Origin: Nocardioides sp.
GTDB lineage: Bacteria; Actinomycetota; Actinomycetes; Propionibacteriales; Nocardioidaceae
Direction of reading: 5' to 3'
DNA: 32,803 nucleotides
Assembly: GCA_025964985.1 (NCBI GenBank)
Contig: JAOPXU010000193.1
Span: forward strand, 1-32,803
Under the pieces are notes generated by a model. That model saw nothing but the letters and a program-made list of their open reading frames with translations. It searched no databases and was not told where the DNA came from. Made by a program: the position numbers and the translations under genes. Below, one piece after another: positions 1 through 23,071 of this stretch; position 1 is the first letter of the stretch; every line of letters starts with the position of its first letter.

Positions 1-928
1 CGGCGGCGAGGACGTCCGGGGCAAGAGCGAGACCGCCCTGCGCCGCGAGATCGGCTACGTCATCCAGGGCGGCAGCCTGTTCCCGCACATGACGGTCGAG
101 AAGAACATCGCGATCGTGCCCAAGCTGTTGGGCTGGGACCGCGGCCGCATCGACCAGCGCGTCGACGAGCTGCTCGACCTCGTCAGCCTCGACCCGGCCA
201 AATACCGCGGCCGCTACCCGCGCGAGCTGTCCGGCGGGCAGCAGCAGCGCGTCGGCGTCGCGCGCGGCCTCGCCGCGGACCCGCCGGTGCTGCTGATGGA
301 CGAGCCCTTCGGCGCCGTCGACCCGATCACCCGGCAGCGGCTGCAGGACGAGCTGCTCTCGATCCAGCGTGAGCTGCGCAAGACGATCGTCTGCGTCACC
401 CACGACATCGACGAGGCGATCAAGCTCGGCGACCGGATCCTGATCCTCCAGGAGGGTGCGCACATCGCGCAGTACGACACCCCCGAGGTCGTCCTCGGGG
501 CGCCGGCCGGCGAGTTCGTCGAGGACTTCATCGGCTCCGGCTCCTCCCTCAAGCAGCTCAGCCTGGCCCGCGTCTCCGAGGTCGAGCTGCGCACGCCGAC
601 GACCGCCACCGTGGGCGAGAGCCTCGCCGAGGTACGCCGTCGGGCCGAGGCCAACGGCGACCGCTCGGTCATCGTGCTCGACCAGCGCGGCCGTCCGGTC
701 GGCTGGCCGTGGCTGCGCCAGCTCAAGGGCGACACCGTGCTGCAACCGGTCGAGGACCTCGTCCACATCGACCAGCGCGCCACCCTCAACGACGCTCTCG
801 ACACGATGCTGAGCTCGAGCCACGGCGGCGCCGTGGTCACCGGTGACCGCGACCAGTACCTCGGCGTCGTGGTGTTCGACGCCGTCACCGAGCACATCCG
901 CTCGCTGGAGGAGCAGGCCGGTGACTGA
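1..928 (+). CDS. Osmoprotectant ABC transporter ATP-binding subunit (OpuCA-like), 5' partial
   Basis: ATPase of a glycine betaine/carnitine/choline importer, acting on the inner face of the membrane. The gene enters from before the window; the reading frame is open from base 2, so the ATG at 89 is internal and the Walker A motif is lost upstream. Visible motifs in order are the Q-loop (VIQGGSLFPH, bases 61-88), the ABC signature LSGGQQQRVGVAR, Walker B VLLMDEPFGAVDP, and the switch histidine in VCVTHDIDEA. The last ~120 residues look like a CBS-domain pair, the regulatory tail of OpuA/OpuC-type ATPases that senses ionic strength in characterised members. The stop overlaps the permease start by 8 bp, so the subunits are probably translationally coupled. 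Family assignment is strong; the exact substrate cannot be read from the sequence. Confidence 0.93.
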   Translation, partial: GGEDVRGKSETALRREIGYVIQGGSLFPHMTVEKNIAIVPKLLGWDRGRIDQRVDELLDLVSLDPAKYRGRYPRELSGGQQQRVGVARGLAADPPVLLMDEPFGAVDPITRQRLQDELLSIQRELRKTIVCVTHDIDEAIKLGDRILILQEGAHIAQYDTPEVVLGAPAGEFVEDFIGSGSSLKQLSLARVSEVELRTPTTATVGESLAEVRRRAEANGDRSVIVLDQRGRPVGWPWLRQLKGDTVLQPVEDLVHIDQRATLNDALDTMLSSSHGGAVVTGDRDQYLGVVVFDAVTEHIRSLEEQAGD

Positions 929-1721
929 CCTCGCCGCGGCCCCGGTCGGCACCGAGCAGGCGACGCCCACGCGCGTCCGCAAGCTGCCGCGGCTCGATCG
1001 CGAGACCCGGCTGCTGCTGGTCGTGCCGCCGCTGCTCGTGGCGCTCGTCCTCGCCGGCTTCGTCTGGTGGCGGCTGACCGCCGACCTCAGCGCCGGCGAG
1101 CTCGAGCAGCTCGCCTGGCCGAAGTTCTGGACCCTGATGGGCCAGCACGTGCGGCTGACCGTCGTGGCCTCCGCCCTCGTCGTGCTCATCGCCGTGCCGC
1201 TGGGCATCGCCCTCACCCGCGGCCCGGTCCGCACGTTCTCCCCGTTCGTGGTGGCGTTCGCCAACGCCGGCCAGGGTGCCCCCGCGGTCGGGCTCATCGT
1301 GCTGCTGGCGATCTGGCTCGGCTACGGGTTCTGGACCGCGATCATCGCCCTGACGCTCTACGGCCTGCTGCCCGTGCTGCGCAACACCATCACCGGGCTC
1401 GACGGGGTGGACCGCACGCTCGTGGAGGCCGGCCGGGGGCTCGGCATGTCGTCGGCCTCCGTGCTGCTCCGCATCGAGCTGCCGCTGGCGCTGCCGGTCA
1501 TCATGGCCGGCGTCCGCACCGCGCTGGTCCTGGTCGTGGGCACGGCGACGCTGGCGACCTTCATCGCGGCCGGCGGCCTGGGCGACATCATCCAGGCCGG
1601 GATCTCGCTGGCCCTGCCGCGGCTGATGATCGCCGGCGCGGTGCTCGTCGCGACGCTGGCCCTGCTCATCGAGTGGCTCGGCCGCGTGCTCGAGCTCGTC
1701 GCCCGACCGAAGGGGATCTGA
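921..1721 (+). CDS. Osmoprotectant ABC transporter permease (OpuCB/OpuBB-like)
   Basis: Integral membrane subunit of the importer, 266 residues. I chose the GTG at 921 because it overlaps the ATPase stop by 8 bp and leaves a short hydrophilic N-terminus (MTDLAAAPVG) before the first membrane segment around residues 30-50. Several further hydrophobic helices follow, and the BPD_transp_1 coupling loop is visible as VEAGRGLGMSSASVLLRIELP at 1423-1485, with the conserved EA...G of ABC permeases. The substrate-binding protein starts 1 bp after this stop. OpuC systems often have two permeases; only one is inside the window, so a second would have to lie upstream or the system uses a homodimer. Confidence 0.92.
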   Translation: MTDLAAAPVGTEQATPTRVRKLPRLDRETRLLLVVPPLLVALVLAGFVWWRLTADLSAGELEQLAWPKFWTLMGQHVRLTVVASALVVLIAVPLGIALTRGPVRTFSPFVVAFANAGQGAPAVGLIVLLAIWLGYGFWTAIIALTLYGLLPVLRNTITGLDGVDRTLVEAGRGLGMSSASVLLRIELPLALPVIMAGVRTALVLVVGTATLATFIAAGGLGDIIQAGISLALPRLMIAGAVLVATLALLIEWLGRVLELVARPKGI

Positions 1722-1722
1722 C

Positions 1723-2691
1723 ATGCGGCGCTGGCCCGCTCTCGCCCTCGCGGGCGCGCTCCTGCCCGTGACCGCCGGCTGCGGCCTCGGGACCGCCGGC
1801 GGCGCCGTACCGGACGCGACGCTCGCCGGGCCCCTGGAAGGTGTCGAGCGCCTCGACGGCGCCGAGATCGCCGTCGGGTCCAAGAACTTCTCCGAGAACG
1901 TCCTGCTCGGCAAGATGACGCTGATCCTGCTCAAGGCCGCCGGCGCCGAGGTCACCGACCTGACCAACATCCCCGGCAGCGCGCCCGCCCGCCAGGCCCA
2001 CGTCGAGGGCGAGGTCGACGCGATGTGGGAGTACACCGGCACCGGGTGGCTCGTCTACCTCGGTCGGCCGAAGCCGGTGAAGGGCAAGGAGGCGCAGTAC
2101 GACGCCGTCCGCGAGGCCGACCTGCAAGAGAACGACCTCACCTGGCTGCCGCCCGCGCCGATGAACAACACCTACGCCTTCGCCATCACGCAGGCCAGCG
2201 CGGACAAGTACGGCATCACCAAGCTGTCCGAGATCAAGAAGGTCCCGAAGGCCGAGCGCACGTTCTGCATCGAGTCCGAGTTCGCCAACCGCTCCGACGG
2301 CCTGCCCGGGATGCTCGAGACCTACGGCGTCGGTGGCGACGAGGTGCCGGGCGCCAACCGGCAGGTCTACCAGACCGGCGCCATCTACGACGCGACCGCC
2401 AAGGGGGAGTGCACCTTCGGCGAGGTCTTCACCACCGACGGGCGCATCATCGCCCTTGACCTCCAGGTGCTCGAGGACGACAAGGGCTATTTCCCCAACT
2501 ACAACGTCTCGCTCGTCGTGCGCTCGGCCGTCGCCGAGCGCTACCCCGAGATCGGGGCGATCACCGCGCCCGTCGCCGAGAAGCTCACCGACGACGTGAT
2601 GTCGCGGCTCAACGCGCAGATCGACGTCGAGGGACAGGAGCCCGAGGACGTCGCGCTGGCCTGGCTGCAGGACGAGGGCTTCGTCGAGTGA
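1723..2691 (+). CDS. Glycine betaine/osmoprotectant substrate-binding lipoprotein (OpuAC family)
   Basis: Extracytoplasmic receptor of the importer, 322 residues. The N-terminus is a lipoprotein signal: MRRW, a hydrophobic stretch, then the lipobox VTAGC with the lipidated cysteine at residue 20. The mature part begins with the typical family segment AEIAVGSKNFSENVLLGKM and contains the region MWEYTGTGWLVYLG, usual for choline/betaine/carnitine receptors whose ligand sits in an aromatic box. A purine-rich Shine-Dalgarno-like run (GAAGGGGA, about 1709-1716) precedes the ATG. Start and lipobox agree, so the start is secure. It is the last gene of the operon; short inverted repeats follow 40-100 bp downstream. 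Confidence 0.93.
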   Translation: MRRWPALALAGALLPVTAGCGLGTAGGAVPDATLAGPLEGVERLDGAEIAVGSKNFSENVLLGKMTLILLKAAGAEVTDLTNIPGSAPARQAHVEGEVDAMWEYTGTGWLVYLGRPKPVKGKEAQYDAVREADLQENDLTWLPPAPMNNTYAFAITQASADKYGITKLSEIKKVPKAERTFCIESEFANRSDGLPGMLETYGVGGDEVPGANRQVYQTGAIYDATAKGECTFGEVFTTDGRIIALDLQVLEDDKGYFPNYNVSLVVRSAVAERYPEIGAITAPVAEKLTDDVMSRLNAQIDVEGQEPEDVALAWLQDEGFVE

Positions 2692-20318: not shown

Positions 20319-21302
20319 TCAGCCGCGCCGGCCGACCACCGGGTTGAGGTCGGAGACAGCGAGGCCGCCCGGCTCGACGCCGGGCAGGAACTCGCGCCAC
20401 GTGCCGCTGATCAACGTCGGCGACGTCACGACCCGGGCGCCGTCGGCGAAGTAGGTGGTGGCCAGGGCCCGCCGGGGCTGGGTGGTCAGGTTGGGGCCGG
20501 CGGTGTGGAAGCACAGCGCGGAGTGGAACGACACCTCGCCCACCGCGAAGGGCCCGGCCTCGACCTCGACCCCGCGCTCGGTGAGGCGCTCGGCGACTGC
20601 GACGTCGTAGGTGGTGCCGACCTTGTCGAACTCGAGGTCGTCGAGCTCGTCGAGCACCCGCACCCCGCGGGCGAAGGACAGGGGACCCATCCGGCCGGGG
20701 ATCGCCGACATCGGCATCCACGCGGTCACGGCCTGGGTGGTCTGCAGCGGGAAGTGCTCGGCGTCGTGGTGCCACGGCGTGCGCCCGCAGCCGGGCTCCT
20801 TGGACAGGGCGTTGTCGTGGTAGATCCGCACGCCCGGCTCGCCCAGCAGTGCGGCGGCCAGCCCGCCGATCCGCGGGGACAGCGCGACCTCGCGCATCAG
20901 CTCGTCGTGGAGCCACATCTGCTCGAGCGCGGTGAACCGGCCGGCGACGTCGGACCCGTGCTCGGCGACCAGCAGGTCCTCGAGCCGGCCGGCGAGGCGG
21001 CGTACGACGGCGGGGGAGAGGACGCCGGGCAGCTTGACGAAGGCGTCGCGGGCGAAGGACTCGACCGCGGCCGGGTCGAGGTCGTAGGGCTCGGCCAGCT
21101 CGCGGGCGAGCTGCTCGTCCGAGGCCGGCTCGACGTCGGGGAGTCCGGGGCCCTCGACGAGGTCGACGGGGGCGGCGTCGTTGGCGGCGAGGGTGACGTA
21201 CCAGTCCCACCAGTCCTGGTCGTCGCCCGCCCAGTCCTGGTCGAGGCCGCCGGTGCGGTTGGCCGCGGGCAGGAGCGGGTTCTCGGGGTTGGTCAGAGCC
21301 AC
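20319..21302 (-). CDS. Phytanoyl-CoA dioxygenase-family Fe(II)/2-oxoglutarate enzyme
   Basis: 327 residues with the PhyH fold. The iron facial triad is visible as H178-x-D180 (TPWHHDAEHFPL) and H266 (CFHTAGPN), and a downstream Arg in QPRRALATTYF fits the 2-oxoglutarate ligand. The family hydroxylates small molecules such as phytanoyl-CoA, ectoine and many natural products. The start is taken as GTG 21302, overlapping the methyltransferase stop by 10 bp; the frame is open further up but there it only shadows the methyltransferase. The N-terminal ~60 residues (Trp/Asp-rich DQDWAGDDQDWWDWYV) are unusual. Co-translation with the methyltransferase suggests a shared small-molecule pathway; substrate unknown. 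Confidence 0.85.
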   Translation of the reverse strand: MALTNPENPLLPAANRTGGLDQDWAGDDQDWWDWYVTLAANDAAPVDLVEGPGLPDVEPASDEQLARELAEPYDLDPAAVESFARDAFVKLPGVLSPAVVRRLAGRLEDLLVAEHGSDVAGRFTALEQMWLHDELMREVALSPRIGGLAAALLGEPGVRIYHDNALSKEPGCGRTPWHHDAEHFPLQTTQAVTAWMPMSAIPGRMGPLSFARGVRVLDELDDLEFDKVGTTYDVAVAERLTERGVEVEAGPFAVGEVSFHSALCFHTAGPNLTTQPRRALATTYFADGARVVTSPTLISGTWREFLPGVEPGGLAVSDLNPVVGRRG

Positions 21303-22111
21303 AGCAGGGCCGCCTCGTGGGAGAAGGTGTAGGAGCCGCTCGCGTCGCGGCAGGAGGCGAGGTAGTCGCCGAGGACGGGAGCCGCCTCCATCTCCTCCAA
21401 CGACACCGCGTCGTCGAACGCGCAGCGCTGCAGGAACCCCTCGACCACGGCGCGGTCGGACGTTCCGGTGCTGTAGCTGACCCGCTGCTCGCGCACGTCG
21501 GCGCCGGCGCGCACGAGTGCGTCGCGCACCTGCTCGGCCGACGTGTACGGCGTCGCCTCGCGCACGCCGGCGCGGAAGGCGTCGTAGAAGGCCAGGTAGT
21601 GCGAGGTCGAGGTGGCCTGCGCGACCAGGCCGAGCCCACCGGGGGCCAGCGCGGCGACGAACCGCTCGGCCGCGGCGTCGAGCTCGGCGGGCGGCAGGGC
21701 GTAGAGGGCGTGGGTGGCCCACACGACGTCGTAGCCGTCGCGCTCGTCGGGCAGGTCCTGCAGCGTCATCACGAGGTCGTGGCGGGCCACGAACGGCGGG
21801 GCGAGGACGCCGCGGGCCTCGGCGACCGAGAACGCCGAGGGGTCGAGCAGGTCGTAGGCGAGGTCGGGCAGGGCGGCCGCGTCGAGGCCGGCGTGACGCA
21901 GCAGCGCGGTGGGGAACTTTCCGCTGCCGCACGCGACGTCGAGCAGCGACCAGCCCTCGTGGGCGTGCTGGGTCAGCAGGGCCGGCCAGTCGGCGGCCAG
22001 GGCGAGCTGGCGGTAGTCCTCGGTGGCGAGGGCGTAGAACGCCTCCATGCCGGTGCGCCCGGCCTCGCTCCAGTGCGCCAGGCTGCGCTCGGCGGTGTCT
22101 CCGGTCGTCAC
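21293..22111 (-). CDS. Class I SAM-dependent methyltransferase
   Basis: 272 residues. Motif I is LLDVACGSGKF (D58-G64 region), followed by DLAYDLLDPS and the motif-IV-like YDVVWATHALYALPP; the second half has VAALAPGGLGLVAQATS, the usual post-motif strand. The N-terminal 50 residues are helical. The GTG start lies 72 bp from the divergent second methyltransferase. The stop overlaps the dioxygenase start. No substrate can be assigned; small-molecule methylation is more likely than nucleic acid because no target-recognition domain is present. Confidence 0.87.
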   Translation of the reverse strand: MTTGDTAERSLAHWSEAGRTGMEAFYALATEDYRQLALAADWPALLTQHAHEGWSLLDVACGSGKFPTALLRHAGLDAAALPDLAYDLLDPSAFSVAEARGVLAPPFVARHDLVMTLQDLPDERDGYDVVWATHALYALPPAELDAAAERFVAALAPGGLGLVAQATSTSHYLAFYDAFRAGVREATPYTSAEQVRDALVRAGADVREQRVSYSTGTSDRAVVEGFLQRCAFDDAVSLEEMEAAPVLGDYLASCRDASGSYTFSHEAALLWL

Positions 22112-22183
22112 GACGGCTGCTCCCTAGGTCGGAATCACCCCTTCGGGCGGGGCGGGGCGCCCGTGCCTGGTTGACTCCCGTCA

Positions 22184-23071
22184 GTGCCCAACCTAGCCCG
22201 GACGCTCACCCCTTCGGATGACCTGTCGGGCTCGGTGCTCGCCGCCGCGCTCCTGGACGTCCTGCGGACGGCCCGCGTCGGCTCGCCGCCGCTGCCCGAG
22301 CTGCCGCCCGCCACCTACGCGCAGGGGCACGCGGCGTTCGAGCTGCTCTCCGACCAGCGCCGCTTGATCACCGAGCACCTGACCGGGCGCCTGCTGCGGC
22401 GTCCGGCCGGCCCGGTCGCGGTCTTCTCCGCCGGGTGCGGCGACGGCACGCTCGACGCCCGGCTGGCCGCGACGCTGTGCGACGCCGAGCCCGACCGCGC
22501 CGTCCGCTACGTCGGCGTCGACCCCTACGCCGCGAGCGCACGCGCCTTCGCCGCCGCCCTGCACGGTCTCGACCGGCCGGGCCTCGACGTCGACGTACAC
22601 ACCTCCACGTTCGACGACGCCCCGCTGGGCGCCGGCTTCGACGTCGTGACCTTCGTCCACTCGATGTACTACGTCCCCGACGTGGCCCGCACGCTCCAGG
22701 CCGCCTACGACCTGCTGCGTCCCGGCGGCGAGCTGCTGGTGCTCAGCGCCCCGCGCGCCGAGCTCAACGCGCTGGTCGAGGTGCTGGCACCCCCGATCGC
22801 GGGCCACGAGCAGTGGTTCAGCGACGACGTCGAGCTCGCCCTGCTGCAGGCCGGCCTCGACGCCGAGGCGCCGCTGACCCTCGAGGCGCGGTGGGACGCC
22901 ACCGCGGCCGACGACGGCGCGCTCGACTTCGCCGTGCAGGCCCTGCTCACCGACGACCTGCGGCCGGTGGTGCGTGCCTACCTCGACGCCGTCGCCGTGC
23001 CCGACCCCGCGTCGTACGCCGGGGTGCGGGTGCCGCACCCGGTCGACGTCTACCGCGTCGTCCGCAGCTGA
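22184..23071 (+). CDS. Class I SAM-dependent methyltransferase, divergent partner
   Basis: 295 residues. Motif I is VFSAGCGDGTLD (G84-G88), then VGVDPYAASARAFAA (motif II acidic residue in VDP) and FDVVTFVHSMYYVPDVARTL, followed by LLRPGGELLVLSAP. The HSMYYVPD segment and the tail after it recall histamine N-methyltransferase-type enzymes, a weak resemblance from memory. The start is GTG 22184; no TANNNT box lies at leaderless distance. It shares a 72-bp divergent intergenic region with the other methyltransferase, so the two plus the dioxygenase may be co-regulated. Substrate unknown. Confidence 0.85.
   Translation: MPNLARTLTPSDDLSGSVLAAALLDVLRTARVGSPPLPELPPATYAQGHAAFELLSDQRRLITEHLTGRLLRRPAGPVAVFSAGCGDGTLDARLAATLCDAEPDRAVRYVGVDPYAASARAFAAALHGLDRPGLDVDVHTSTFDDAPLGAGFDVVTFVHSMYYVPDVARTLQAAYDLLRPGGELLVLSAPRAELNALVEVLAPPIAGHEQWFSDDVELALLQAGLDAEAPLTLEARWDATAADDGALDFAVQALLTDDLRPVVRAYLDAVAVPDPASYAGVRVPHPVDVYRVVRS

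What the first reader, a model, noticed from the sequence alone, without database searches (positions are those of the whole stretch)
20319..23071. Dioxygenase plus two divergent methyltransferases: possible small-molecule tailoring cassette
An Fe/2-oxoglutarate dioxygenase overlaps one methyltransferase by 10 bp, and a second, unrelated methyltransferase diverges from a 72-bp shared region. Hydroxylation and methylation pairs are typical of metabolite tailoring. No core biosynthetic gene is adjacent, so a modified osmolyte, amino acid or cofactor is more likely than a polyketide or peptide.
Basis: inference. Interest (0 to 1): 0.5.

Follow-up and report, generated by a model that had tools for sequence, protein, structure and literature searches.

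The report
Histidine-betaine tailoring gene cassette
Three neighbouring genes, an iron-dependent oxygenase and two methyltransferases resembling the enzyme that methylates histamine, form a unit that recurs in distant bacteria, in some of them with the gene that makes histidine betaine, so they probably make an undescribed histidine-derived metabolite.

Summary
In detail: a PhyH-type Fe/2-oxoglutarate oxygenase (DIOX, 20319-21302 -), a methyltransferase overlapping it by 10 bp (MT1, 21293-22111 -) and a divergent methyltransferase (MT2, 22184-23071 +) after 72 bp.

The set is a real unit. Of 80 loci fetched with DIOX alone, 58 carry DIOX+MT1+MT2 and 75 at least one cassette methyltransferase, from Actinomycetota to Proteobacteria and Myxococcota. 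The genes co-diverge (r 0.88-0.91). In four Nocardioides genomes they are the only genes shared within 8 kb.

Histamine N-methyltransferase is MT2's best profile match (8e-20) and MT1's best fold match.

The new lead is EgtD, the histidine trimethylase that makes hercynine. It lies within about 4 kb of DIOX in 9 of 80 loci, in several distant lineages, is present in 46 of 49 cassette genomes, and in four Methylophilaceae assemblies occurs without an EgtB match.

Best reading: an unreported branch from hercynine to a hydroxylated, probably ring-N-methylated histidine betaine. Substrate and product are inferred, not shown.

The parts
20319..21302 (-). DIOX: Fe(II)/2-oxoglutarate oxygenase of the PhyH family, with an N-terminal extension W24...WWDWY; iron triad H178, D180, H266, and R277 (2OG anchor)
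   Evidence: Pfam PF05721 67.4 bits; profile best PDB SnoK 1.4e-21, SnoN 8.6e-19, MysH 7.7e-15; residues W24, W31, W32, W34, Y35, H178, D180, H266, R277 identical in 57 of 57 rows of A5; AF2 model pLDDT 94.3. Roles of the triad and R277 are from general knowledge of the superfamily.
21293..22111 (-). MT1: class I SAM methyltransferase with HNMT-like fold; overlaps DIOX by 10 bp
   Evidence: AF2 model pLDDT 93.4; Foldseek rank 1 human HNMT, TM 0.70; VIA-align Z 18.5-20.1 for HNMT chains, next JHAMT 17.6; homologous to MT2, HHalign E 8.6e-13.
22184..23071 (+). MT2: HNMT-like class I SAM methyltransferase, divergent from MT1; true start may be 22184 or further in (e.g. 22235)
   Evidence: Profile A7 best PDB match HNMT 1jqe, E 7.8e-20, positions 28-263 on 12-268; start doubt.
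22112..22183 (.). 72-bp intergenic region between the divergent starts
   Evidence: Gap of 39-111 bp in 52 of 55 divergent loci.
22171..22199 (+). Conserved promoter-like element on the MT2 strand: TTGACT (22171-22176), 17-bp spacer, TAGCCC (22194-22199), overlapping the annotated MT2 start
   Evidence: GA[GT]TCAA[CG] (its complement) 5-6 nt from the MT2 start in 17 of 54 divergent loci, background 0.067 per kb; aligned 5' regions. Function not shown.

Best explanation
The three genes are a self-contained, horizontally transferred biosynthetic cassette that branches from hercynine (histidine betaine, the first ergothioneine intermediate). EgtD, encoded elsewhere in this genome and beside the cassette in several other lineages, trimethylates the alpha-amino group of histidine. 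DIOX hydroxylates the betaine, most plausibly at the side-chain carbon next to the ring. MT2, or its substitute MTalt in Alphaproteobacteria and Methylophilaceae, is a histamine-N-methyltransferase-like enzyme that methylates an imidazole nitrogen. MT1, absent in some lineages, adds one more methyl group (second ring nitrogen or the new hydroxyl). The product would be a hydroxylated, ring-methylated histidine betaine.

Shown by computation: the unit, its conservation, the folds, the conserved iron triad, the EgtD linkage and EgtD's conserved histidine-binding residues. Inferred: hercynine as substrate, reaction positions, order of steps, product and role.
For: Unit: 58 of 80 DIOX loci hold DIOX+MT1+MT2 and 75 of 80 at least one cassette methyltransferase; identity matrices correlate at r 0.88-0.91 over 40 rows, 0 of 500 permutations reach it. 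Among 13-21 genes called within 8 kb in each of four Nocardioides genomes, only DIOX, MT1 and MT2 match between genomes at 1e-5.

Methyltransferases: HNMT is MT2's best profile match (7.8e-20 against 6.3e-10 for the next protein) and MT1's best fold match. HNMT pocket residues Glu28 and Gln143 (named in PMC9867436, passages seen) align by my reading with Q58 (45 of 45) and H159 (43 of 45, Q in the other 2).

Hercynine: EgtD in the fetched stretch of 9 of 80 loci, beside DIOX in G320, and in G450 in the order MT2/MT1-DIOX-MFS-EgtD. Four local EgtDs were tested with TIGR03438 directly and exceed the equivalog cut-off (350-416 against 290.9). Histidine contacts Y39, Y56, N166, Y206, E282, S284 of EgtD (residue numbers in PMC8593015, passages seen; offset of 2 to the chain inferred) are kept in 11 of 11 local EgtDs. 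EgtD is over cut-off in 46 of 49 cassette genomes. Genomes with DIOX carry EgtD in 4 of 4 Nocardioides (61 of 147 overall), 3 of 3 in the family of G188, Methylophilaceae (17 of 120) and 4 of 4 in the family of G212, Haliea (60 of 140); Fisher-combined p 2e-4. No EgtB match in G187, G188, G192, G199.

Betaine transport: an OpuAC-type ABC transporter lies next to MT2 in L158-L161 (Pfam run on the L159 gene).
Against: EgtD is local in a minority of loci (9 of 80), and most cassette genomes tested also have EgtB (28 of 42 over cut-off), so there EgtD is explained by ergothioneine. Three cassette genomes show no EgtD (G185, G203, G205); all are MAGs by title, and G203 has EgtB. MT1 is absent at E 1e-10 from 9 cassette genomes tested. 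HNMT Glu28 is Gln in MT2. MT1's sequence profile does not hit HNMT; only its fold does. DIOX's nearest solved relatives act on antibiotic sugars and mycosporines, not on histidine. The co-occurrence p-values ignore phylogeny, all three groups were centred on a genome known to carry DIOX, and one of the four DIOX genomes in the G212 family (G464) matches only residues 71-324; without it that p is 0.076. No ligand was docked and no chemistry was observed.
Confidence: 0.5

Rival explanations
1. The cassette modifies ergothioneine itself (for example S- or ring-N-methylation plus oxidation) rather than hercynine.
For: Most cassette genomes tested have EgtB (28 of 42 over cut-off); the own genome has EgtB and EgtD side by side on C7.
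Against: Methylophilaceae G187, G188, G192, G199 and the Frankiaceae genome G183 carry EgtD beside the cassette and have no EgtB match at E up to 0.001. All are draft assemblies, and a sulfur-inserting enzyme of another type was not searched for.
Confidence: 0.15
2. The substrate is another amine, amino acid or betaine; EgtD and betaine transporters are neighbours only because such organisms handle many methylated amines.
For: EgtD is local in 9 of 80 loci only; class I methyltransferases of this fold accept many substrates (next fold match JHAMT, an O-methyltransferase).
Against: EgtD linkage in Frankiaceae (L114), Methylophilaceae (L118, L119, L123, L131, L211), gammaproteobacteria (L150, L152, L156, L209) and L122; HNMT as best relative for both methyltransferases.
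Confidence: 0.25
3. A degradative or detoxifying cassette: DIOX oxidatively cleaves or demethylates a quaternary amine, and the methyltransferases mask toxic imidazoles or amines.
For: 2OG oxygenases can cleave C-N bonds (general knowledge); uptake-type OpuAC transporter next to MT2 in L158-L161. A loose cluster of short-chain dehydrogenases occurs in 15 of 82 clustered loci, in five Mycolicibacterium/Mycobacterium loci 0.6-1.5 kb from DIOX.
Against: A methyl-adding EgtD beside the cassette points to synthesis; the dehydrogenases are of mixed strand and distance outside those five loci. Genes of trimethylamine handling were not searched for.
Confidence: 0.08
4. Chance neighbours or a tailoring fragment of a larger natural-product cluster.
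For: DIOX homologues without the methyltransferases exist in Streptomyces, Kitasatospora and Amycolatopsis genomes (L031 and L149, L151, L153, L155).
Against: Conserved unit in 58 of 80 loci; no other gene family is in more than 15 of the 82 loci clustered.
Confidence: 0.02

Closest known systems
Ergothioneine pathway (EgtD, EgtB and others)
   Same: Starts from histidine via EgtD to hercynine; EgtD sits beside the cassette in several lineages and passes the TIGR03438 cut-off where tested.
   Different: No EgtB in the window (in this genome it is on C7); PhyH oxygenase and HNMT-like methyltransferases instead of sulfur insertion; four Methylophilaceae assemblies have no EgtB match.
Histamine N-methyltransferase (HNMT, human)
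   Same: Best profile match of MT2 and best fold match of MT1; aligned YY motif.
   Different: Bacterial, low identity (10-12% for MT1), Glu28 replaced by Gln in MT2, in a gene row with an oxygenase.
SnoK/SnoN (nogalamycin) and MysH (mycosporine) Fe/2OG oxygenases
   Same: Nearest solved relatives of DIOX: Z 24.3-25.3, rmsd 2.5-2.8 A over 228-239 residues.
   Different: DIOX has a conserved aromatic N-terminal extension (W24, W31, W32, W34, Y35 in 57 of 57) outside the part spanned by those alignments (model residues about 71-325); different gene neighbours.
Ectoine hydroxylase EctD
   Same: A PhyH-fold enzyme that hydroxylates an osmolyte (fold Z 19.6-20.5; one EctD row, 4mhr, has a model range starting at residue 19).
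   Different: Lower Z than SnoK, SnoN and MysH; ectoine genes were not searched for, and none was noticed by eye among the neighbours.

Membership tests
PhyH family Fe/2OG oxygenases (DIOX) | Pfam PF05721 over gathering score | tested here: met
   67.4 bits against 22
PhyH family Fe/2OG oxygenases (DIOX) | HxD...H iron triad and distal Arg | tested here: met
   H178, D180, H266, R277 in 57 of 57 rows; that these are the triad is from general knowledge
Histamine N-methyltransferase family (MT2) | Full-length sequence homology | tested here: met
   Profile A7 to 1jqe, E 7.8e-20, positions 28-263 on 12-268
Histamine N-methyltransferase family (MT2) | Polar pocket residues Glu28 and Gln143 | tested here: inconclusive
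   Aligned positions are Q58 (45 of 45) and H159 (43 of 45; Q in 2): conserved but changed
Histamine N-methyltransferase family (MT2) | Methyl transfer to an imidazole nitrogen | not testable with these tools
   Needs an enzyme assay
Histamine N-methyltransferase family (MT1) | HNMT-like fold | tested here: met
   Foldseek ranks 1, 2, 4, 5 and 6; VIA-align ranks 1-4, Z 18.5-20.1, rmsd 3.2-3.4 A over 249-255 residues
Histamine N-methyltransferase family (MT1) | Sequence profile match to HNMT | tested here: not met
   HNMT not among the 21 matches at E up to 0.1; related to it by sequence only through MT2
EgtD, L-histidine N-alpha-methyltransferase (cassette-local copies) | TIGR03438 equivalog cut-off 290.9 bits | tested here: met
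   L114 350, L150 413, L152 414, L156 416 bits; Methylophilaceae G187, G188, G192, G320 361-368 bits and G199, cut by the contig end, 339; G450 398; G191 348
EgtD, L-histidine N-alpha-methyltransferase (cassette-local copies) | Histidine-contact residues Y39, Y56, N166, Y206, E282, S284 | tested here: met
   Kept in 11 of 11 local copies (residue numbers from PMC8593015, mapped through)
Ergothioneine biosynthesis cluster | EgtB (TIGR03440) in the gene row | tested here: not met
   In the own genome the only EgtB match is on C7, not on the window's contig; 8 of 42 genomes have no match at E up to 0.001
Mycosporine-like amino acid cluster (MysH) | MysA, MysB, MysC core genes adjacent | not tested
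   No such model was run

The most novel reading that the evidence does not exclude
A widespread second fate of hercynine: bacteria of several phyla, including small-genome Methylophilaceae, make an undescribed hydroxylated histidine betaine whose imidazole is methylated on one or both nitrogens. If both, it would carry a 1,3-dimethylimidazolium ring like that of the marine betaine norzooanemonin, and this cassette or a relative of it could be a bacterial route to such imidazolium betaines.
Probability: 0.3. Interest if true: 0.78.

Novelty: new variant of a known kind. Interest (0 to 1): 0.6.

Why it matters
Hercynine is usually treated as an intermediate of ergothioneine. A conserved, horizontally spread cassette that apparently takes hercynine elsewhere would open a second branch of histidine-betaine metabolism in bacteria of several phyla, and would give HNMT-like bacterial methyltransferases a testable role. 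It also makes a question of marine chemistry, the source of methylated imidazole betaines, open to direct test with a few genes in E. coli.

Tried and rejected
Plasmid searches with MT1 and MT2 gave nothing of use (no match for MT1, one weak Calothrix match for MT2). DIOX matched 14 plasmid records; the two neighbourhoods opened have no such methyltransferases. NCBIfam gave no equivalog over its cut-off for any of the three proteins. One search aligned a wrongly chosen 10-base stretch; its alignment A1 was not used. Model coordinates were not found in the Python box, so whether the N-terminal aromatic cluster of DIOX forms a betaine cage over the iron could not be tested; that idea is a guess. 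The Glu283/Ser285 numbering I first looked up for EgtD does not occur in the paper, which uses Glu282/Ser284. Halogenase rejected: the Asp taken as the triad residue is kept in 57 of 57 rows. The Nocardioides genome G118 has an isolated MT2 homologue without DIOX or MT1.

Literature: ten searches of the held library. No listed paper, judged by title and abstract start, concerned a hercynine branch with a PhyH oxygenase or this cassette; the library lacks most subscription journals. Apart from passages of PMC8593015 and PMC9867436, only listings were seen. Norzooanemonin as 1,3-dimethylimidazolium-4-carboxylate is from the abstract start of PMC11342128 in a listing.

Rows dropped: of 80 DIOX loci, 56 plus the window went into A5; of 68 MT1 hits, 50 plus the window into A6; of 62 MT2 hits, 44 plus the window into A7 (redundant, truncated or DIOX-only rows left out). 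The 80 loci are not 80 independent genomes: L135/L140 and L141/L145 share an assembly by title, L082 and L110 agree in contig length with G099 and G155, and many are Rhodococcus. One search took 50 of the 80 loci; one search took 39 of those 50 genomes plus G000, G099 and G119. The genus and family samples were drawn from larger groups where the tool says so.
Full report
WHAT IS THERE. The coordinates of the finding are right. On the minus strand MT1 (21293-22111) runs into DIOX (20319-21302) with a 10-bp overlap; MT2 (22184-23071) leaves in the other direction after 72 bp. DIOX is a PhyH-type Fe/2OG oxygenase (PF05721, 67.4 bits). MT1 and MT2 are class I SAM methyltransferases. The window lies in a draft assembly of 426 contigs, 89.74% complete and 6.19% contaminated.

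THE SET IS A UNIT. Of 147 sampled genomes of the same genus (own included), close homologues of DIOX and of MT1 occur in the same four: own, G099, G119, G155; the other matches are weak (E above 1e-7). MT2 is in those four and alone in G118. The four share the divergent layout; among the 13 to 21 genes called within 8 kb in each, only DIOX, MT1 and MT2 match between genomes at E 1e-5. A scan of genome contigs with a DIOX alignment gave 91 relatives; the 80 best were kept. With cut-offs of 1e-35 for DIOX, MT1 and MT2 and 1e-50 for EgtD and MTalt: DIOX+MT1+MT2 in 57, plus 1 with EgtD as well; DIOX+MT1+MTalt in 7, plus 1 with EgtD; EgtD+DIOX+MTalt in 3; EgtD+DIOX+MT2 in 3; DIOX+MT1 in 2 (L113, L140; both near a contig end); DIOX+MT2 in 1; DIOX+EgtD in 1 (L131, cut by the contig end); DIOX alone in 4 (L149, L151, L153, L155). 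Pairwise identity matrices of the three proteins over 40 rows correlate at 0.91, 0.91 and 0.88; none of 500 permutations reached these values. Host phylogeny contributes to this. In the DIOX tree Nocardioides is split: the window lies in a group of 14 with Williamsia and Rhodococcus (98/94), Nocardioides AX2bis in a group of 5 with Frankiaceae (95/86), so the cassette seems to move between orders.

THE METHYLTRANSFERASES. Profile A7 (45 MT2 rows) finds human histamine N-methyltransferase first (7.8e-20, nearly full length; the next protein 6.3e-10). Profile A6 (51 MT1 rows) finds no clear solved relative by sequence (best 5.8e-4), but its AF2 model (pLDDT 93.4) has HNMT first by Foldseek (TM about 0.70) and by VIA-align (Z 18.5-20.1; JHAMT next at 17.6). 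MT1 and MT2 profiles match each other (97.8%, E 8.6e-13). MTalt, which takes the place of MT2 in Alphaproteobacteria and Methylophilaceae (11 loci, none with MT2), also matches the MT2 profile (95.9%, E 6.3e-9). HNMT pocket residues Glu28 and Gln143 (PMC9867436, passages) correspond by my reading of the alignment to Q58 (45 of 45) and H159 (43 of 45), followed by an invariant YY. A shared fold does not prove an imidazole target.

THE OXYGENASE. The iron triad H178, D180, H266 and R277 are identical in 57 of 57 rows, as are W24, W31, W32, W34 and Y35 of an N-terminal extension. Its nearest solved relatives are SnoK, SnoN and MysH; the aligned ranges of these start at residue 71 or later, past the extension.

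THE LINK TO HERCYNINE. Neighbour clustering showed a gene that passes the TIGR03438 EgtD cut-off next to MT2 in L114, L150, L152 and L156. A further EgtD lies between MTalt and DIOX in L119 and in L118 and L123, at the contig end in L131, and about 4 kb from DIOX in L122. In G450, of the family of the Haliea genome G212, the order is MT2 (divergent), MT1, DIOX, a transporter that looks like the MFS protein of L137, and EgtD; in G320 (family of the Methylophilaceae genome G188) EgtD sits beside DIOX. Histidine-contact residues are kept in 11 of 11 local EgtDs (residues from PMC8593015, passages, mapped through). Across genomes EgtD is over cut-off in 47 of 50, that is 46 of 49 without the DIOX-only Kitasatospora genome. 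DIOX-bearing genomes have EgtD in 4 of 4 Nocardioides (61 of 147 overall), 3 of 3 in the G188 family (17 of 120, 14 over cut-off) and 4 of 4 in the G212 family (60 of 140, 57 over cut-off; one of the four, G464, has a DIOX match without the N-terminal part). Hypergeometric p 0.028, 0.0024 and 0.032 (0.076 without G464), combined 2e-4, without correction for phylogeny or for the choice of centre genomes. EgtB (TIGR03440) is over cut-off in 28 of 42 genomes tested and has no match at E up to 0.001 in 8, among them the Methylophilaceae G187, G188, G192 and G199. If that absence is real, EgtD there cannot feed the usual EgtB route, and the genes beside it are the cassette. All four are draft assemblies, and other ergothioneine synthases were not searched for.

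TRANSPORT. L158-L161 have an OpuAC-type betaine ABC transporter next to MT2 (Pfam on the L159 gene). L137 and L141 have an MFS transporter in the gene row (Pfam); L125, L154 and G450 have one that looks alike by eye. Both fit a small betaine-like substrate or product.

RESULTS AGAINST. EgtD is local in 9 of 80 loci only. Three cassette genomes show no EgtD (G185, G203, G205). MT1 is missing at E 1e-10 from nine cassette genomes tested (G187, G188, G192, G199, G209, G210, G212, G216, G320), so it is not essential to the chemistry. Glu28 of HNMT is changed. A loose cluster of short-chain dehydrogenases is near the cassette in 15 of 82 loci, conserved in place only in five Mycolicibacterium/Mycobacterium loci. 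Nothing here shows chemistry.

VERDICT. A real, widespread and, as far as the ten searches of the held library show, undescribed small-molecule cassette. The most likely mechanism is EgtD to hercynine, then hydroxylation by DIOX and N-methylation of the ring by HNMT-like enzymes, held at about 0.5 as a whole; that the genes work as one pathway I hold at about 0.95.

Noticed in passing
window 22171-22199: A promoter-like element (TTGACT, 17 bp, TAGnnC) conserved in much of the Nocardioides/Williamsia/Rhodococcus clade lies across the annotated MT2 start and keeps CTA/ATA codons that are rare in such genomes (rarity from general knowledge); either the start is further in or the element has another role.
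   Followed up: partly
window 2-2691: An OpuA/ProVWX-like betaine ABC transporter (ATPase, permease, binding protein; named by eye) about 17.6 kb from DIOX; its permease and binding protein cluster with the transporter beside MT2 in L158-L161. Probably coincidence.
   Followed up: partly
L118 5346-6236, L119 5834-6724, L130 2481-3365 and eight more loci: MTalt, a different methyltransferase that matches the MT2 profile, takes the place of MT2 in Alphaproteobacteria and Methylophilaceae; no locus holds both.
   Followed up: partly
G450:C1:1732271-1732851: Besides the cassette EgtD, G450 has two weak partial EgtD-like matches (175 and 54 bits) next to each other elsewhere on the chromosome.
   Followed up: no
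L031 11812-12864; L149, L151, L153, L155: DIOX homologues in Streptomyces, Kitasatospora and Amycolatopsis (L031 is 46% identical) without the cassette methyltransferases; L031 lacks the WWDWY extension and lies near a GMC oxidoreductase.
   Followed up: no
G118:C1:1383331-1384146: An isolated MT2 homologue (54% identical) without DIOX or MT1 in a Nocardioides genome that has EgtD.
   Followed up: no
L112: A contig titled Candidatus Melainabacteria carries the cassette, but its DIOX groups with a Frankiaceae sequence (96/96); the bin may be misnamed or contaminated.
   Followed up: no
L085 and L090: treekit labels two Rhodococcus records as Cyanobacteriota, apparently a name-resolution slip in the tool rather than biology.
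   Followed up: no
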